Below, one piece after another: positions 5,336 to 16,844 of a stretch of DNA of 64,000 nt. The position numbers and the translations under genes were made by a program. The DNA comes from Gordonia pseudamarae (GTDB lineage: Bacteria; Actinomycetota; Actinomycetes; Mycobacteriales; Mycobacteriaceae). How positions within the stretch are numbered: the first letter of the stretch is position 1; each line of letters starts with the position of its first letter. Location: assembly GCF_025273675.1 (NCBI RefSeq), contig NZ_CP045809.1, forward strand, positions 1,240,001-1,304,000, written 5' to 3'. Below the pieces are notes generated by a model. That model did no database searches and was not told the DNA's origin. It saw nothing but the letters and a program-made list of their open reading frames with translations.

Positions 5336-6318
5336 CTAGATGGTTGATTCCTTGGACGCGGTCAGTGGTCGTACGCGATCAGGGATCGTTTGGTGGTGAT
5401 GCCGGTGGTCCAGTTGTGCCAGATGCCGGCGGACATCGCCAGGAGGCGTTGACTCACTCGGGCGAACACTCCGTGGGTGGTCCGGCCGCCGTGTTTCTCC
5501 AGGCCGAGCTGCCCTTTGAGGGTCTGGTTGACCGATTCGATCCACTGCCGCACCCCGCCGAGGTTGCCGTTGCGGTAGGTCTCGTCCTTGCGGTCCGGGC
5601 GCAGCAACCGCAGGCCCATCGCGGCGGTTGTGGCAGCGAACGTCTTTCCGGAGAAGCCCTTGTCGGCGAGCAGCACCTGCCCGGAGCGGATGAGGTGGTG
5701 ATCGCGTTCGAGCAGCGCGGTCACCACCTCGCGTTCACCGATCTTCGGATGCGCCAGGCACCACATGATCGGCATCCCGTCGCCGGCGCACACCAGATAC
5801 AACTTCAAGCCCCAGTAGAAACGCGAGTGTGACGCGCAGTAGCCGTATCCGGCGTGCCCGGCCAGGCCGGACCGCTTGACCGTTTCCCTTGACATGCCAC
5901 ACGGAACCGGGGTGGCGTCGGTGATCCACAGGTCGTCGAACCACGACGGTGAGAGCCGTGCCACCGCCTGAATTGTCTTGCACAGCAACCCTCGTGCAGC
6001 CCTGACACGCTTGTTGTAGTCGGACTGGCCCGGCAGATACGGGAACAGTGCGCGCAGTTGCTCGTTGCCGTGGACGTGCCGGATCCAACGCCGTTCACTG
6101 TCGAACCCGAGCAACACCTGCGCTACCGCGAGCGTGAGCAGTTCGGCATCGGAGAGCAGCGGGCGCCAGCCGCGTCCCGAGCGGGGTTCGACGACGTGGT
6201 CGTCGATGAGGACATAGAGTTCAGTCAGGAGGGTTTCGAGTTCTTTCGTCACACATTGATCTTGAAGCCCTCCGCCTACCTCGTTGCCGACGGCACCTTC
6301 AAGGAATCAACCATCTAG
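5336..6318 (-). mobile_element. IS982-family insertion sequence
   Basis: About 983 bp bounded by perfect 19-bp inverted repeats: CTAGATGGTTGATTCCTTG at 5336-5354 and its complement at 6300-6318. It contains one transposase gene on the minus strand. The right end has been invaded by an IS630 element at the TA of its terminal CTAG. No clear target duplication is visible between the left flank (before 5336) and the re-joined right flank (after 7954), suggesting later rearrangement. Confidence 0.85.
5362..6252 (-). CDS. IS982-family transposase
   Basis: The 296-residue DDE transposase has the features expected for IS982: an N-terminal LLSDAELLTLAVAQ segment, the first Asp in WITDATPVPC, the second in LLADKGFSGK, and a Glu in RQWIESVNQTLKGQ. 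Length is normal for the family (about 290-300) and the frame is intact, so it may be active. It fills nearly the whole element between the 19-bp terminal repeats. Confidence 0.92.
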   Translation of the reverse strand: MTKELETLLTELYVLIDDHVVEPRSGRGWRPLLSDAELLTLAVAQVLLGFDSERRWIRHVHGNEQLRALFPYLPGQSDYNKRVRAARGLLCKTIQAVARLSPSWFDDLWITDATPVPCGMSRETVKRSGLAGHAGYGYCASHSRFYWGLKLYLVCAGDGMPIMWCLAHPKIGEREVVTALLERDHHLIRSGQVLLADKGFSGKTFAATTAAMGLRLLRPDRKDETYRNGNLGGVRQWIESVNQTLKGQLGLEKHGGRTTHGVFARVSQRLLAMSAGIWHNWTTGITTKRSLIAYDH

Positions 6319-7951
6319 TGGTCATCTCCGTTAGTTCGTCGGGGGTCACGCCGCTTGGCGGAGGGTGCCGTCGTTGTTGAGTCGGTTGAGGTGGCGGTTG
6401 AGGTGGTCGCGGGTGTATTTCCAGCCGAAGGGTTCAGCGTTCTGGTTGTAGCGGTCCTCGAAGGCGAGGATTCGTTGCGCGAGGTCATCGAGGTCGGTGA
6501 AGTCGCCGGTGGTGATGGCTTTGCGTTGCAGGATCGAGAAGTAGATCTCGACTTGGTTGAGCCACGAAGCGTGTACGGGCAGGTGCACCAGGACCGCGCT
6601 GGGGAACGCCTCACGCATCCGGTCGATCGATGCCTGCCCGGCGTGGGAGGAACCGTTGTCGACGATCCAGAACACCCGCTTCGCTGAGGCATACGGTTCC
6701 TGGGTCATCACTTGTTTCACGAGGTGGGTGAACGGCACGATCCCGGTCTTCGGTGCTGTCATTCCATGCACCTGGGCGTGGTGGACGTCGTAGGCAGCGA
6801 AGTAGGCCAGCGTGCCACCGCGGCGGTACTCGAACTCGACTCTGCGTGGTTGCCCTGGTGCCGCGGGTGTTTCGGGGTGACGCCGCCTGAGGGCTTGCAG
6901 CTGGGACTTCTCATCGGCGCTGATCACGTATTCATCAGCGCCGAGCTCGACACCGTTGTACTGCCGTTGGTACAGGTCCAGCACCGGACTTGCTTTGACC
7001 GCGAAGTCGGGGTCGCGGGGAAAGATCCAGGACCGATGCTGCCACGGCTTGATCGCATCGGCGGCCAACCACCGGCCGATCGTGGACGGCGAGACTGGCC
7101 GCACCAGCCCGGCCGCAACCGCGTGTGTGCTGAGTTCGGCGGTCGACCACCTCGTTAACGGCAGATCGTGGTCGGCCGGTCGCGTGCACGCGAGTGCTTT
7201 GACCTCGGCAACCTCGACCGGGGTGAACACCGGTGGCCGCCCTGATCGGGGCCGGTCCTTAAGCCCGTCAAGACGCTGCACGCAGAAGCGATGTCGCCAG
7301 CGGCGGGCGGTGTCCTCGCAGACCCCCACGTCGCGGGCAATCTGGGCGTTCGCGACACCGTCAGCAGCAGCGAGCACGATCCGGGCACGCAGCAGATCGC
7401 GATGGGGGCATTTCGCGGCGTTCGCGCGGCGTGTCAGGACATGTCGTTCTTCATCGGTGAGGACCACGACGTCAGCACTGGTGAGAGTCACATCCATTTC
7501 TGACGCTCCGAGCCGCCGGAGGCCAAGACGCCACGCCGACACCGAACAGATCAAGGCAGCACATGACGATGCCACGATGATGAGAATCATGGCGAAGATC
7601 CCCGACTCGACCCAGACCTCGCTACGGCAAAAGCTCCTGGCCCGCGCCGCCGAACGCTGGCCCCAGATCCAGACCCTGCACACCCGCTACCGTGCGGGGT
7701 TCGCCTACATCGACGCCACCCTCACCGACGGCGAGGAGGTGAAGCTATGCCGGCTGCGCTACGCCGGATCGGCCAACCAATGGGGCTTCGCGATCTACCG
7801 CGCCAGCCACAACGACTACGAACAAGCCGTCCTCCCCACCGGCTGGCCCTCAGGCACCCCCGAGCAAGCCCTCGACACCGCCTGCGGCCTCTACCTCAAC
7901 GACCCCACCACCTGGCTCCCAGACCCCCGACGAACTAACGGCGATACCCAC
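6318..7951 (-). mobile_element. IS630-family insertion sequence with a passenger gene
   Basis: About 1.63 kb flanked by duplicated TA dinucleotides (6316-6317 and 7952-7953), the IS630/Tc1 hallmark. The ends are about 30-bp inverted repeats matching at 27 of 30 positions: GTGGTCATCTCCGTTAGTTC on the left and GTGGGTATCGCCGTTAGTTC on the complementary right end. It carries a minus-strand transposase and a divergent plus-strand passenger gene. It inserted into the TA within the last four bases (CTAG) of the IS982 element, so IS982 arrived first. Confidence 0.85.
6346..7497 (-). CDS. IS630-family transposase
   Basis: The 383-residue DDE transposase begins at the ATG at 7497; the open frame runs further upstream but that part is not protein-like. 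It has an N-terminal helix-turn-helix (about residues 20-75, DVGVCEDTARRWRHRF), then the catalytic Asp in ISADEKSQ, the second Asp in WIVDNGSSH and the Glu in NQVEIYFS. The DDE spacing and the TA target place it in IS630. The frame is intact and the C-terminus ends just inside the left terminal repeat. Confidence 0.92.
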   Translation of the reverse strand: MDVTLTSADVVVLTDEERHVLTRRANAAKCPHRDLLRARIVLAAADGVANAQIARDVGVCEDTARRWRHRFCVQRLDGLKDRPRSGRPPVFTPVEVAEVKALACTRPADHDLPLTRWSTAELSTHAVAAGLVRPVSPSTIGRWLAADAIKPWQHRSWIFPRDPDFAVKASPVLDLYQRQYNGVELGADEYVISADEKSQLQALRRRHPETPAAPGQPRRVEFEYRRGGTLAYFAAYDVHHAQVHGMTAPKTGIVPFTHLVKQVMTQEPYASAKRVFWIVDNGSSHAGQASIDRMREAFPSAVLVHLPVHASWLNQVEIYFSILQRKAITTGDFTDLDDLAQRILAFEDRYNQNAEPFGWKYTRDHLNRHLNRLNNDGTLRQAA

Positions 7952-11800: not shown

Positions 11801-12425
11801 GCTCGCTCTGCTCCCAGAAGTGATCGAACCACTCGCGCACCTTGCCGGCCGCCCGTGTCCCGCCACCCGTGCCGAGGTTCAGTTCGGCGTTGTGGGCCAG
11901 ACCCGCATAGGTCATGTTCGATGACCCCGCGATCGCCGCCTGCGTTGACGCGTCCTCGACGAGGTACGTCTTACCATGCAGGAACCCGTTCGTGTAGCGC
12001 CGCACCTCGACCTTGGCGACTCCATCGAGGTCCACGCTTTGGAGCCATTCGACCATCCGCCTGCACTCCGCAGACGGCACGCGCGCGAATCCCATGGTGT
12101 CACGTTCGGCTTCCAGCCATGCCTGGTGATGCTGAATAGCGGTATCGCGGCGGGCATCCTGGTCGGAATCACCCGACGTGATCGCACGAACCGAATCCTC
12201 CTCCGGCTCGGCACCCAACAGTAGCCGCACCCGAGGTGCGGTCTCCAACTCATCTGCGAGGAGCGCGAATCCGGCCGGGTTGATGTAGGCCGTGGCGATC
12301 GCGATCGGTGGTGCCGTGACCTTATTCTGCCGCAGCAACCGAAACAACTCGTTAACCGTGTCAGCAACCGTGGTCGCCGCATCGCTCGGAGCGTGATTGG
12401 TGGCGAAATCGGGCAACTGGGTCAC
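8898..12425 (-). CDS. PLD-nuclease/SNF2-type helicase fusion (defence-type)
   Basis: The 1175-residue protein joins an N-terminal phospholipase-D-like domain (HGK at His150/Lys152, Asn170 in GSSNMTYAGL) to a superfamily 2 helicase. The helicase has motif I GLGKT (283-287), DEAH (366-369), TATPVNN (398-404), and a C-terminal RecA domain with LAEGVNLQQA and QRHGRVDRIG, followed by about 350 further residues. PLD domains with one HxK usually act as dimers in nucleases. It starts at a GTG overlapping the methyltransferase stop by 4 nt (GTGA), so the two are co-translated. DISARM combines the same activities (helicase, PLD protein, adenine methylase) as separate genes. A DNA-defence role is likely but inferred. 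Confidence 0.85.
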   Translation of the reverse strand: MTQLPDFATNHAPSDAATTVADTVNELFRLLRQNKVTAPPIAIATAYINPAGFALLADELETAPRVRLLLGAEPEEDSVRAITSGDSDQDARRDTAIQHHQAWLEAERDTMGFARVPSAECRRMVEWLQSVDLDGVAKVEVRRYTNGFLHGKTYLVEDASTQAAIAGSSNMTYAGLAHNAELNLGTGGGTRAAGKVREWFDHFWEQSEPYDLAALYSRRWDPHTPWLIYLRMLWELYGEHLDADEDPLIRTGLNLTRFQADGVVRMERLLEEHGGVLVADEVGLGKTFLAGEVIYRTANVNRQRVLIVAPAALKSSMWEPFLKAHDFSRWVDVYSYEEIRNRLDPDKGSTDAFLQEVEDYSLVVIDEAHNLRNSGAQRSGAVDRVITAGSPKRVVLLTATPVNNSLNDLETLVKYFIRDDARFASLGIPSIHEYIKHAQNVDPANLTPEHLFDLMDQVAVRRTRKFVKEHYTNELITSPDGKLTPIRFPQAKVRRIDYDLDDNGLALIDAMVYALDDPTDPSAPRAWEVRSRDPGRLMLARYLSSMYTVEHDLQEYQITNAGLLRSGLLKRLESSPQALYASLTKMIESHEVFLDVLDKGYVLRGDALSEWVSSESDDLDAFVTEFDNDQQIESTDDYHLDALETDVASDIALLRGLRDLAESVVQGTEPKIRTLIKQLTAIATDARRIDPRGLSHSDRRKVIIFSAFTDTILPVHEAVVTAIENAPAESPLADYKGRVAPPIMGSYAKTHERGASGGVDQGGRAATIAGFAPVTAGPQNAAGQPTAKDAFDLLFATDVLAEGVNLQQAGQMINYDLPWNPMRIVQRHGRVDRIGSKHDYVRLGLFFPAERLDALLALEARLEAKLALADAAVGAGQVLPGRGPGHEVNLTDDQVIDEFEKLLDAGGASASLSGEEYRRRLSRSFTMERSLRAEVLSLPFTSGSGFVNPAVQGNGYVFCVKMGSSTTPWFRYVAVDNDWTVRHNDQGRPIISPDTLLSLRVADPQSSTAERWLPDEVYDRAFDAWEAARDDAYATWKELTDPNAFQPDLPLSFRNAYELVLRKGRYLGKDEQSSLANRLRTVPTAKVTRQVRSALNQGATDEQRIQLIAEILDEAGITPPPPRDPLPDIEKHEVRLVTWVAVRGTRGLEEQVDELQGHGGSVGHIPGTTLPEELF

Positions 12426-15400
12426 ACCGCTACCGCACTTTCAGTGAGCTTGGCGCAGGCTGCCAGGAAAATGTCATCGGGGTAGCCCTTGCTGGTGAAA
12501 TCCTCACGAATGGCTGAGAAGTCGGTGAGGGTCAGTCCGTATCCGTGCGCGACGACCGCATCTATCCCCGCGATGAGATCGTTCTTCGTGCAACCGTTGT
12601 ACGGGGACTTTTGGGCTCGCTCGGCGACGTCAATATCGCCAGCCAGACGAGTAAATCCCGAATGGGTGAGGAGTACGGCTACACGGCTTGAAATCGCAGC
12701 GATATCGCTGGGACTAAGGTTCGGTACCGGAAGATTGTTGATCACCGGTGCCGTCACGTGACGGTCCACGAACCTTCGTGCCCACCAATCTTCGACAACG
12801 GAATTGAATAGACCGAGGACGGCGAGCCTTACGTCTTCGGAAGTTCCGGGCAGGTGGGCGAATGCGTGAACATATCCCTTATTGTAGATCCACCCTTCGT
12901 TCGGCAGCGCCGTCGCGATCAGTGTGCGAGTGTCATCGGACCGACTGGGGTGGCGGAACAAGACCACCGGGTGATCTGCGCTGATGGTGGCGCACCTGTT
13001 GGAATTGGTGTTAATTCCCCGATCTTTGTTGGCGATGCCGTCGAAGTCAGTGATGAACTGCTTTATGGCAGCAGGGCGCAATTCGTATGCGTCTGCGTGT
13101 CGAGTCATCATTACCTTCCATGCTCCAGGTTCATCGATCCTGGACGCAAGCCCTCGGTCCGGACCGCTTCCTCGGAAATCCCACCGAGCGTCGTGCACTC
13201 CTTGCGCCCACGATCCAGGTCTGGAGATTCGGGGATACTTGCGCATTTTGTCGAACACCTCGCGGTCGCCAGGATTGTTGAACCACGGGATTGCTTTCGA
13301 GTCCGACATTGACGTTAGCTCATCGCGTGTAAAAGCCAGAACGGAGTTGTCTCCAATGGCACGAAGGTCCTTCGCGGATTGGACTACCCCGACTCGGATC
13401 GGATCTCCTTGAATTTTGGAGGCATTAAGCAGAACGACTGCGTAGCGGGGTTCGACCTTCTCGAAGAGCCATTCTGCCTTGTTTCGCGCTTGGACCACCA
13501 GGACGTCGTGTCGGTCCAGAATCTCTTTCCGGAGATTCTTCCACCCGCTGAGCACTGAGAACTGTCGTGGAAGCACCAGTCCGATCTCGCCGGATGCAGA
13601 CACAGTCTTTAACGCGCGCTCAAGGAAGAGCTGTGCGAGTTCGAGGTGGGTGCCGCCCCTCCATGCGAATGACTTCTTGAAGAATTCCTGAAGCTCCTGG
13701 CGTGAGCGTGCTTCCGCATCCTCCTCGGCTGCTTCTACAGGGCGAGACGTGCGGAGATGTTTAATGCGCTCGGCTCGCTTCACGTCAGGCAGTGCGATGA
13801 GGCCAGGGTCGCGCACTGCCCAGAACGAGGTGGGTTCATGCCTGACTTTCTCCCATGGCGGGTTTCCGAGTACGACATCGAAGCCGCAGGTGGCGCGTAG
13901 AAATACCTCGGGGAAGAGGTAGGGCAAGTGCGCTGGGACCAATGGGTGGAGAACCTCACCGGGTGCTGTGGCCTGAGTCAGTCGGCTGACGTGCTCCGGC
14001 CGAGTGATACTTGTCGACCATCTTCCCATGCGGACGGCGACAGCTGCGTCGAAAATGCGCTTGGCTGGTTCAGCTGCATTGCGTGCACGCTCGAGGAGGT
14101 CGGCGGACTTCTGGACTTCCGATTTCGTTGCTTCCGCCGCATTTGCCATGTCCAGGAGCAAGGGTTTGGATGACTCAAGGTAGTCGGTGAGGATCGTTCT
14201 TAGCCATAGCTGGTAGCCTCCGCGATTTGGCTTCTGCGTGGAGTGCTCGGAGAACAGCGAGTCAGCGGGTTCGAAGAGTCCATCTCCAAGACCGGCAGCA
14301 CTGAGGGCGGAGCCATCAAATGAAGCTGACACACCTACAAGTGCATCGACCGCTTCATCGATGGACCCAATACCCGTGAGGCTGTTCGCGTTCACGAGAC
14401 CGTGGTCGAGGTTGCTCATGGGAAGGCCCGGAACGAAGGTGTGAATCCAGAGGGCGAGACGAGCAAGCTCAACGGCCATGGGGTTGATGTCGAGGCCGTA
14501 GATGCAGCGCCGGGCAACCTGACGACGGAGCAAGCCGACTTCATCGACCTCGGACTTGGCGACTTCGTCGGTGCCGAGTGCGTCTCGAGCAACAGTGCGG
14601 AGCCGGAGAAGCTCTTCGGTCACGCCGGGCACAGTGTGTTCGGTGAGGAAGTCCCGCATGAGGGCTTCGATCTTGTCGACGGCGGCGACCAGGAAATGGC
14701 CCGAACCCATCGCGAGGTCGGCAACGCGGAAGTCAAAGAAGTCACGGGCGGCGGCAGCCGCATCACCGTCTTTGAGATATGTGGCGATCTTGTCGAGGTG
14801 CGTTGTGAGCGCGGGTACGATTGAGCGTTCGATCAGGTGATCGACGACAATCTTGGGTGTGAAGTACGAACCTGTCGCTTTTCGCTCACCGGAGGCAGTG
14901 TGGAAGTAGACGGAACCTTTCGGTGCGGTGACGGCATCGCCCCGCTTGGCAGGTGCCCATGCACCGTTCTTGTCGACTGTGAGGTCTTCCGCTGCGAACG
15001 ATAGGGAACTTTCCAGCAGACCCTCGTAGATGGTGCCGAACTCACGGACGCTCAATGACCGGAAATCGACCGGCCCGAGCGCATCGTCGGAGCTGACATC
15101 TATGAGCAAGCTGCGCAATGCTGGCCCGAGCACGTTGTCGGGTAGCGCGATCTTGCTGATGAGCGCCCCTTCAGGCGACCGAGCGGGGTCATTCGAAAAC
15201 AATCCACCGTTGTAAGCCGGGATCTGCCACTGCGGGTTGCCCTGGTCGATGGCATTCCACACCTGTACAAGGTCGAGCCAGATTGTCGAAGCATCGCCGA
15301 ATGTATGGATCTCGGAGTCGAGGAGACGTTTCGCATTCGTCTTTAGGCTATTCGCGTCGAATCCCGCGTTGCGTCTTGCGGGCAGGAGGCCACGATCCTC

Positions 15401-16503
15401 CGCGTATGCCTGGAACAGGAGCCGGAACAGGATTCGCAGCGTCACACGATAGGCCATCGCCAACCCGTCGGCGTCGAGGGTGACGCCGGCGTGCTTGGTG
15501 AGCCGACCCGCGACGTCGACCGCGAGCGGTGGCACGATCTCGTCGTAGACGCGCTCCCGGAGTCGGGCGCCAAGGTCAGATGCGTAGCGCGCACTGTCGC
15601 GTAGCAGCTCGTCGGCGGTCCCGTCGGCGGCGAGAGCATCTGCGGAGAAGACCAGCGGCAGGAGTGCGGCGTAGTTCGAGTCGATGGCGGAGAGGTCGAT
15701 CTCAAAGAACGTTTCCGACTGCCCTTTGGACCCGACACCGACACCATCGCGGCCGGGGTAGAGCCGAATCTGGTCCTTCCGGAGTACAACGAGCCACGGT
15801 GTCTCCTGCCGGGATGCGACAGCAAGGCCGAAAGCTACCGGTGAAAGCTGGAATCGGGGAGTCTTCGCGTCGAACTGTTCGGAGTCATCGAGCAGAACGG
15901 CAACTGCGCGGGGAGGTCCGGGGGGGGGCTTACCGTCAACAGCATGGTGCCGTTCGGGCCGGGTTGAGTACCGAAACCGAGCGCATCGATGAGTGGTTTT
16001 CCACGTTTGCTCAGAAGCGGAGCGGCTCGCTTGCGTTTGGACTCCCAGTCTGTGCGCTCGGGGGCGTTCTGGGTGACGTGATGTGATGCGAACAGGCCGC
16101 TGTTGGTGAAACCTGCGACACCGGTCGAATCGTCGGCCTTGCGGAAACCGGCGTATCGTTCCGTGGCGTCGAAGAGGTCGGGTTCATCGAGTACGGATTG
16201 GAGCTGTCGCTCGGCTTGATCGACCGGGAGCTGGACGGCCTGCGCGTGTGGGTCTGGACCGAACAGGTGGACAGTGTCACGATCGATCACCGCGACCACG
16301 AGTTGGATCGACATCTTGCCCTTCCGAGCGATGAAGAGTTCGCGGAGCTTACCGCGTGTTGGCGTGCTTGCCGACGTGGCGACGGCGACCTGGAAGCCGC
16401 CATGTCCCTGGGGGTCGGGGCCTATGTACACCTGGCCCAGGGAGATGTCGCTGGGAGCGGCTGCTTCCTTCCAAGTCACGACCATATCGGCGGTCAGGCG
16501 CAC
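12422..16503 (-). pseudogene. Eco57I-type N6-adenine DNA methyltransferase, frameshifted at a G9 tract
   Basis: Two frames together encode one large methyltransferase. The first (GTG 16503, behind GAGGGG) gives an N-terminal domain ending in LTVSPP near 15925. The second continues without internal stop from about 15920 to the TGA at 12422, with motif I AMGSGHF near 14713, GLDINP, and catalytic NPPW near 13860. Protein-like sequence continues upstream of the first canonical start in the second frame (GTG 15535) right up to the G9 run, so that start is not the real one. Ten Gs (or seven) would restore a single frame, about 1360 residues with ten. The state may be phase-OFF, a true mutation or a sequencing error. 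N6-adenine specificity is inferred from NPPW. Confidence 0.85.
15920..15928. repeat. Poly-G tract (9 G) at the methyltransferase frameshift
   Basis: Nine consecutive G on the plus strand (nine C in the coding strand) coincide exactly with the point where the methyltransferase coding frame switches. Homopolymer tracts of this length are prone to slippage, and poly-G tracts are classic phase-variation switches in restriction-modification genes. Confidence 0.9.
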
Positions 16504-16701: not shown

Positions 16702-16774
16702 GCTCTCGTAGCTCAGGGGATAGAGCACGGCTCTCCTAAAGCCGGTGTCGCAGGTTCGAATCCTGCCGGGAGCA
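16702..16774 (+). tRNA. tRNA-Arg (CCT anticodon)
   Basis: A complete cloverleaf is visible: acceptor GCTCTCG pairs with CGGGAGC, D-arm GCTC/GAGC, anticodon stem CGGCT/AGCCG around loop CTCCTAA with anticodon CCT at 16735-16737, T-arm with GGTTCGAATCC, and discriminator A at 16774. CCA is not encoded. It borders the accessory block, but I see no second copy of its 3' end that would mark an integration event. Confidence 0.97.
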
Positions 16775-16844
16775 CTCTCGCGTTCGTGCCGGCACCCGGT
16801 CGGCGCGCCACCATCAGGCGTCGGAGCGCACCGAACAGTCCGGA

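What the first reader, a model, noticed from the sequence alone, without database searches (positions are those of the whole stretch)
15900..15945. Poly-G9 switch interrupts a large DNA methyltransferase gene
The methyltransferase changes reading frame exactly at a run of nine G. Protein-like sequence continues without a stop on both sides (LTVSPP before; PRAVAVLLDDSEQFDAK after). Ten or seven G would give one continuous frame (about 1360 residues with ten). Poly-G phase switches are classic in methyltransferase and restriction genes but are rarely described in actinobacteria. If real, the defence system would be reversibly OFF in this isolate, with the downstream helicase gene, coupled by GTGA, probably affected too.
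Basis: partly seen in the sequence, partly recalled or inferred. Interest (0 to 1): 0.8.

Follow-up and report, generated by a model that had tools for sequence, protein, structure and literature searches.

The report
Slippery C-run silences a defence gene
In this Gordonia genome a run of nine identical bases shifts the reading frame of a probable phage-defence DNA methyltransferase gene, and another strain seems to have a longer run that is also out of frame, so this looks like a slippage-prone off-switch of a kind known from Streptomyces and Campylobacter, although no working copy from this species was found.

Summary
G9 at 15920-15928 (C9 on the coding strand) separates a 5' piece (15835-16503, minus) from a 1,167-codon piece (12422-15919). 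Intact relatives read through this point as one ~1,350-residue Eco57I/type IIG-like methyltransferase, overlapping by four bases a conserved PLD/SNF2 helicase gene. The break falls exactly at the run, which is absent at this site in 14 of 14 related loci read, so it arose in this lineage.

New evidence: a database protein from another contig (P0121) equals the whole 5' piece except for one extra proline in the run, implying a run three bases longer, still out of frame. A second long run in this genome (G000:C1:122300-122310, CHAT/TPR gene) is also a homologue-verified frame break; a near-identical database protein there ends in the third frame. Run length thus appears to differ among strains at both loci.

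Against a working switch: no in-frame copy from this species appeared in a protein search, and the operon is broken by other lesions in a sister species.

Best reading: slippage-driven ON/OFF switching, OFF here (0.5); rival, a recently dead gene with a drifting run (0.35). Poly-G switching of an actinobacterial defence methyltransferase is already known (pglX): new member of a known kind.

The parts
15920..15928 (-). C9 run on the coding strand (G9 on +), site of the frame break
   Evidence: no run of 7 or more at this site in 14 of 14 related loci read (L086 read)
15835..16503 (-). 5' part of the methyltransferase gene: GTG start at 16503, in frame to the run, then 27 out-of-frame residues to a stop at 15835
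   Evidence: start agrees with homologues; relatives match residues 1 to about 195, that is up to the run; PDLC03620 REase_MTase_IIG 1.1e-8
12422..15919 (-). Main part of the methyltransferase gene (Eco57I/N6_Mtase, motifs GSGHF and NPPW); no ATG/GTG/TTG before 15535, which lies inside a conserved region and is unlikely to be a real start
12422..12425 (-). GTGA: stop of the methyltransferase overlapping the GTG start of the helicase; 4-base overlap also in L128, L129, L008, L016, L018
8898..12425 (-). PLD-like (HKD-type) + SNF2 helicase, 1,175 aa, open throughout
   Evidence: 75-86% identical next to the methyltransferase in 13 of 13 close loci (in L009 and L015 only the part on the contig)
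16702..16775 (+). tRNA-Arg (cct) next to the operon start; possible island boundary (inference)

Best explanation
The C9 run is a slippage-prone tract that sets the reading frame of a type IIG/PglX-like adenine methyltransferase, the specificity and protection half of a two-gene defence operon (methyltransferase + PLD/SNF2 helicase). When DNA polymerase slips on the run, the two halves of the gene come into or go out of one frame. In this isolate they are out of frame: translation stops 27 residues after the run, no full-length methyltransferase is made, and because the helicase start overlaps the methyltransferase stop the helicase is probably under-expressed too, so the system is OFF as a unit. 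Shown: run, frame break, open remainder, conserved overlap. Inferred from protein sequence: a different run length in another strain. Inferred only: slippage as cause, polar effect on the helicase, reversibility, phage-defence role.
For: Break exactly at the run, relatives in one frame through it; of six relatives in 401 genomes of the family at E <= 1e-150, five have one open frame of 1,337-1,390 codons. P0121 matches the 5' piece with no amino-acid difference except one extra Pro in the run, an inferred +3 bases. The codons upstream of the start in P0121 differ at 7 of 43 compared positions, against 0 of 221 inside the gene (Fisher 2e-6; 6e-4 if the four changes nearest the start count as one), as expected if the protein is under selection at least at times. 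No stop or second frame break in the 1,167 + 1,175 downstream codons. dN/dS of the window pieces against relatives is 0.04-0.18. A second long run in the genome (122300-122310) is also a homologue-verified frame break and has another inferred length in a near-identical protein, whereas 13 of the 14 runs of 7-8 with clear coding on both sides are in frame, the fourteenth being a gene boundary. Precedents: pglX G-tract; Cj0031, a polyG type IIG gene with an Eco57I domain, where many homologues lack the tract.
Against: No in-frame copy of this species' gene among the hits (5,601 hits from 7,989 scored candidates, best 120 listed; such a copy should rank first): the nearest full-length relative is 78% identical, and the cluster holding this gene (14 members, 12 contigs) is represented by the truncated 1,037-aa form. 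All four alleles read or inferred at the two loci are out of frame. The tract is not conserved in the family (14 of 14 loci lack it). Faster amino-acid change in the 5' piece on this lineage than in G008 (36 vs 18 unique changes with outgroup L012, P = 0.02; 34 vs 19 with L008 or L018, P = 0.05; G028 similar), though the same tendency is seen in the downstream piece (36:26) and helicase (94:70) and the difference from the helicase is not significant (P = 0.26). The same operon is broken in G028 (second frame break, helicase interrupted) and P0145 looks like a deletion remnant. A first-order base model does not make a 9-base run unusual.
Confidence: 0.5

Rival explanations
1. Recent loss of function. 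A short C-rich stretch expanded in this lineage, slipped out of frame and the gene is dead or dying; the run now drifts in length but is not a maintained switch.
For: No in-frame copy listed. Other inferred lengths are also out of frame. Tract absent in relatives. Operon broken independently in G028 and apparently in P0145. Two transposase genes lie downstream at 5362-7683. A third gene that follows the helicase in five relatives is absent here.
Against: No stop or second frame break in 2,342 downstream codons. No amino-acid change in 221 codons between two strains whose upstream DNA differs. Low dN/dS.
Confidence: 0.35
2. Sequencing or assembly error in a long homopolymer.
For: Two of three runs of 9 or more are frame breaks in the same assembly, which is where such errors would fall.
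Against: P0121, from another contig, carries the same out-of-frame tail. The cluster of the truncated downstream form covers 12 contigs, the longest of 5,213,089 bases, not this genome's 5,147,008. 13 of 14 judgeable runs of 7-8 are in frame.
Confidence: 0.08
3. The gene is expressed despite the break, by ribosomal or transcriptional slippage on the run, giving a low constant level of full-length enzyme whatever the length.
For: Both lengths (9 read, 12 inferred) leave the same frame offset; the protein sequence stays conserved.
Against: Relatives need no slippage. No slippage signal was looked for beyond the run. The CHAT gene shows two different offsets.
Confidence: 0.05

Closest known systems
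Phase-variable pglX of the Streptomyces coelicolor Pgl (phage growth limitation) system
   Same: Actinobacterial phage-defence methyltransferase gene with a G tract; phase variation is attributed to its length, and two of three delta-pglZ strains had gone from 8 to 7 G (PMC4365076, passages read)
   Different: Different methyltransferase subfamily (best PADLOC hit PDLC03620 type IIG, 573 bits, against 45 bits for the best PglX profile); the genome's only PglZ match is 3.1 Mb away; switching measured there, not here
Cj0031 type IIG restriction-modification enzyme of Campylobacter jejuni NCTC11168
   Same: Eco57I-domain enzyme of similar length (1,243 aa), polyG tract of nine in the gene, two reading frames when OFF, tract missing in many other strains (PMC4889913, passages read)
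   Different: There the tract sits late (position 2573 of 3732) and ON and OFF colonies were isolated; here it sits about 195 codons from the start, as a C run, and a helicase gene follows
DISARM class 1 (DrmMI + DrmD)
   Same: Methyltransferase and SNF2 helicase score on DrmMI (195 bits) and DrmD (114 bits) profiles
   Different: PF09369, which I recall as the DrmA/DrmB mark, has four places in the genome and none in the window
Bifidobacterium breve pilus replication-slippage switch
   Same: Slippage ON/OFF switch in an actinobacterium (PMC9187656, title and start of abstract in the search listing only)
   Different: Pilus genes, not defence

Membership tests
Homopolymer phase-variable (contingency) locus | Long G/C run inside a coding frame, break exactly at the run | tested here: met
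Homopolymer phase-variable (contingency) locus | Run length differs between isolates of the species | tested here: met
   P0121 has one more Pro in the run, inferred +3 bases; protein-level inference, DNA of that contig not seen, same species assumed from 100% identity
Homopolymer phase-variable (contingency) locus | Both ON and OFF alleles exist in the species | tested here: inconclusive
   No ON allele listed; clustering at 90% and few isolates limit the test
Homopolymer phase-variable (contingency) locus | Reversible switching at high frequency in clones | not testable with these tools
   needs reads or cultures
Pgl / BREX type 2 | PglX with PglZ (and PglW, PglY) in one locus | tested here: not met
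   Only PglZ match (PF08665) is at 4379036-4379560, 3.1 Mb away; PglX profiles score weakly; PglW and PglY not searched
DISARM class 1 | DrmA/DrmB (PF09369, link recalled) beside DrmMI/DrmD | tested here: not met
   four PF09369 places, none in the window
Type IIG restriction-modification enzyme | Adenine methyltransferase motifs and Eco57I/N6_Mtase domain | tested here: met
   PF07669 4e-14, PF02384 5.8e-5; GSGHF and NPPW; PDLC03620 2.8e-172
Type IIG restriction-modification enzyme | Nuclease domain in the same protein | tested here: inconclusive
   No nuclease family in Pfam scans of the pieces; AlphaFold model of a relative's N-terminus too poor beyond residue 125

The most novel reading that the evidence does not exclude
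This Gordonia species keeps a small set of poly-C contingency loci in conflict-type genes, at least the methyltransferase operon and a CHAT/TPR protein. Slippage at these varies the set of active immune genes between sister cells. It would be a defence 'phasome' in a relative of the mycobacteria, with the tracts born in or beside proline codons at variable or C-terminal positions.
Probability: 0.25. Interest if true: 0.7.

Novelty: new member of a known kind. Interest (0 to 1): 0.45.

Why it matters
If the switch is real, it extends poly-G/C switching of phage defence from Streptomyces pglX to Gordonia and to a methyltransferase-helicase operon with overlapping genes, where one slippage event could turn modification and its partner off together without self-damage. 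It would also mean that single reference genomes record as 'pseudogenes' defence systems that are only OFF in the clone sequenced. The two loci make a cheap test: read tract lengths in existing read sets.

Tried and rejected
Lone assembly error: unlikely because another contig carries the same out-of-frame tail and judgeable runs of 7-8 in this genome are in frame. In one search I scored 36 runs: the three of 9 or more, the three of 8, and 30 of the 37 of 7 (seven had no locus). 21 of 36 were 'low', among them the window's own run and the CHAT run, so for those two the homologue comparison was used; 13 were in frame, one was a strand switch (the 10-base run) and one an apparent break (L162), which is a gene boundary.

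Conserved contingency tract of the family: rejected, 14 of 14 loci read at the site have no run of 7 or more there. L015, which lacks the 5' part, was left out, and L086 was first printed in the wrong orientation and read correctly. Two of the 14 (L016, L011) have a 7-base run about 2.8 kb further on. Of the 79 loci only the 13 closest (L006-L018) were used as close relatives.

Close copies on plasmids: one distant match only (Paenarthrobacter plasmid, 74% over 92% of 1,301 bases). Viral contigs: none.

Structure: the N-terminal model of a relative (13 sequences) has mean pLDDT 52, good only to residue 125. The run would fall between two predicted strands, but with low confidence, so no fold search was made.

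No solved structure matches the methyltransferase piece by sequence.

Literature (open-licence PMC library only): Gordonia with phase variation and restriction-modification gave five papers, none by title about a Gordonia switch; Gordonia with homopolymer and phase-variable gave none. The original pglX phase-variation paper (Sumby and Smith 2003) is not held and is known here only through PMC4365076. One search listed five papers, none naming this methyltransferase/PLD-SNF2/HEPN combination in its title.

Full report
WHAT IS THERE. The window is part of a complete 5,147,008-base genome (G000:C1:1240001-1304000). I take it for Gordonia: the closest named protein is from Gordonia sp. JH63, named relatives of the CHAT gene are mostly Gordonia, and same-genus genome G008 has a 5,208,602-base contig, which I recall as the size of G. 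bronchialis. Nine G stand at 15920-15928. The gene runs on the minus strand, so the coding strand has C9. Upstream of the run an open frame starts at GTG 16503, at the same place as the start of its relatives, and reads to ...GPNGTMLLTVSPPP. It then runs 27 residues out of frame to a stop at 15835. Downstream another frame is open from the run to 12422, 1,167 codons, with no ATG/GTG/TTG before 15535.

WHAT THE GENE IS. The downstream piece has Eco57I (PF07669, 4e-14) and N6_Mtase domains, the motifs GSGHF and NPPW, and scores 573 bits on the PADLOC type IIG profile PDLC03620, with DrmMI at 195 and the best PglX profile at 45 bits. The upstream piece matches the N-terminus of the same PDLC03620 profile. 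It is followed, with a GTGA overlap, by an open PLD-like/SNF2 helicase of 1,175 aa. In 13 of 13 close loci (L006-L018, of 79 fetched) the same helicase, 75-86% identical, lies downstream; in L009 and L015 only part of it is on the contig. The 4-base overlap is seen in 5 of 5 relatives for which both ends were read (L128, L129, L008, L016, L018). The C-terminal, probably target-recognising part of the methyltransferase varies strongly (G008: 86% over residues 4-529, 33% over 576-1132 of the downstream piece), while the helicase is conserved. A third gene (HEPN_Swt1 + DUF3320) follows the helicase in 5 loci (L128, L011, L012, L014, L018) of 17 loci searched together with the window, not all of which reach far enough downstream; L006 has only short fragments elsewhere; the window has none. 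The gene is rare: 4 of 59 Gordonia genomes match at E <= 1e-30, one of them distantly (G002), and 7 of 401 family genomes at E <= 1e-150, this one included; of the six others five have a single open frame.

THE BREAK IS AT THE RUN. Relatives read LLS[IT]GGHPPRAVAVLLDDSEQFD or a variant through this point in one frame. In all 14 loci where the site was read there is no G/C run of 7 or more at it. The run is therefore a lineage-specific expansion in a short segment that varies among relatives (IGGH, IDGQ, VDDH, STND). A first-order base model expects about 1.3 runs of 9 or more in such a window, but over-predicts long runs (16 of 7 or more expected, 2 seen). The whole genome has three G/C runs of 9 or more (9, 10 and 11 bases), three of exactly 8 and 37 of exactly 7; the 7-to-8 decline predicts 0.26 of 9 or more (P = 0.0025), an assumed slower decline 1.0 (P = 0.08).

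RUN LENGTH VARIES. A search with the upstream piece returned 27 proteins from 398 candidates. The best, P0121 (266 aa, one member, 2,622-base ENA contig), equals the window's piece, including the out-of-frame tail, except for one extra proline in the run. Codons upstream of the start differ at 7 of 43 positions, against none of 221 inside the gene. That suggests a different strain with the protein sequence under constraint, though a local recombination or a poor contig end cannot be excluded.

A SECOND LOCUS BEHAVES ALIKE. Of the other two long runs, one is intergenic just after a stop (3417597-3417606). The other (122300-122310, C11 on the coding strand) lies near the end of a CHAT/TPR gene. 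Homologues in five other Gordonia genomes (G045, G001, G003, G009, G006) read through a PPP[AT]L motif into a conserved tail in one frame, and a sixth (G025) has the tail. In G000 that tail is in another frame from the body. None of the eight homologue loci examined has a run of 7 or more. A near-identical protein, P0148 (11 members, 7 contigs), differs at one residue before the run and then ends in the third frame, so its run has another length. By contrast, of 36 runs scored, 14 had clear coding on both sides in one strand. These were all of 7-8 bases; 13 are in frame and the other is a gene boundary; 21 could not be judged, the two breaks themselves among them. So long runs seem length-variable in this species, and the assembly is not generally poor at homopolymers.

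AGAINST A WORKING SWITCH. In one search (5,601 hits, 120 listed) a full-length copy of this gene should have ranked above the truncated form. None did, and the best full-length relative is 78% identical. The cluster of the truncated form has 14 members on 12 contigs. Its representative is the 1,037-aa form; for P0148 the representative is the longest of the possible phases, which suggests, but does not prove, that the longest member is chosen. All four alleles read or inferred at the two loci are out of frame. In the sister species G028 the methyltransferase is split near its 3' end, and the helicase frame is lost at residue 341, where a sequence follows that I recognise from memory as transposase-like; the contig ends there. 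P0145 joins the N-terminus directly to helicase sequence. The 5' piece changed faster in this lineage than in G008 (36:18, P = 0.02, outgroup L012; 34:19, P = 0.05, with the other two outgroups; G028 similar), but the downstream piece (36:26) and helicase (94:70) lean the same way, and the difference from the helicase is not significant (P = 0.26). dN/dS of the window pieces is low (0.04-0.18), though synonymous sites are near saturation, so this speaks of the long past rather than of recent time.

MECHANISM. Most likely, replication slippage changes the run. In the OFF state translation ends 27 residues past the run. No full-length methyltransferase is made, and the overlapping helicase start 3.4 kb further on is no longer reached by translating ribosomes. 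Modification and helicase would thus fall silent together, which is safer than losing modification alone. Shown: run, break, overlap. Inferred from proteins: length difference. Inferred only: slippage, polarity, reversibility, defence.

COMPARISON. It works like pglX of Streptomyces coelicolor, whose phase variation is attributed to a G tract that had gone from 8 to 7 G in two of three delta-pglZ strains (PMC4365076, passages). It also works like Cj0031 of Campylobacter, an Eco57I-type IIG enzyme with a G9 tract that many other strains lack (PMC4889913, passages; PMC6321876, passages). It is not a Pgl/BREX locus (PglZ is 3.1 Mb away) and not a full DISARM locus (no PF09369 in the window). Verdict: a new member of a known kind if it switches; otherwise an ordinary frameshifted defence gene.

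Noticed in passing
G000:C1:122300-122310 (L126 2001-2011, L150): Second long C run at a frame break, in a CHAT/TPR protein gene; homologues in five Gordonia genomes are in one frame, and a near-identical database protein ends in yet another frame.
   Followed up: yes
G000:C1:3417597-3417606 (L127 1998-2007): Third long run (10 bases), intergenic, directly after a stop codon of an open frame.
   Followed up: partly
G028:C8 (L129 1-5313): In another Gordonia species the same operon is broken twice: methyltransferase split near its 3' end, and helicase frame lost at residue 341 before what looks (from memory) like transposase sequence at the contig end.
   Followed up: partly
L128 10419-11543; L018 12992-14089; L011, L012, L014: A HEPN_Swt1 + DUF3320 protein gene follows the helicase in five relatives, as a possible third component (RNase-like by recalled knowledge of HEPN); not found in the window.
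   Followed up: partly
P0145 (24.9 kb ENA contig): Methyltransferase N-terminus, 81% identical to the window's over 36% of the piece, running directly into helicase sequence, as after an internal deletion.
   Followed up: no
G000:C1:4777391-4783702 and 4379036-4379560: A PF09369 protein close to another relative of this methyltransferase (perhaps DISARM-like), and a PglZ gene: this genome seems to carry several defence systems.
   Followed up: no
for example G010, G015, G050, G051, G054, G056, G058: Some of the 59 Gordonia genomes have dozens to hundreds of 9-mer G matches, partly from very long G runs (at least 47 G from G015:C1:4858045), while 10 have none; real tracts or sequencing artefact not checked.
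   Followed up: no
window 5362-6252 and 6346-7683: Two transposase genes (DDE_Tnp_1; DDE_3 with HTH) downstream of the helicase, so the island's left side is IS-rich.
   Followed up: partly
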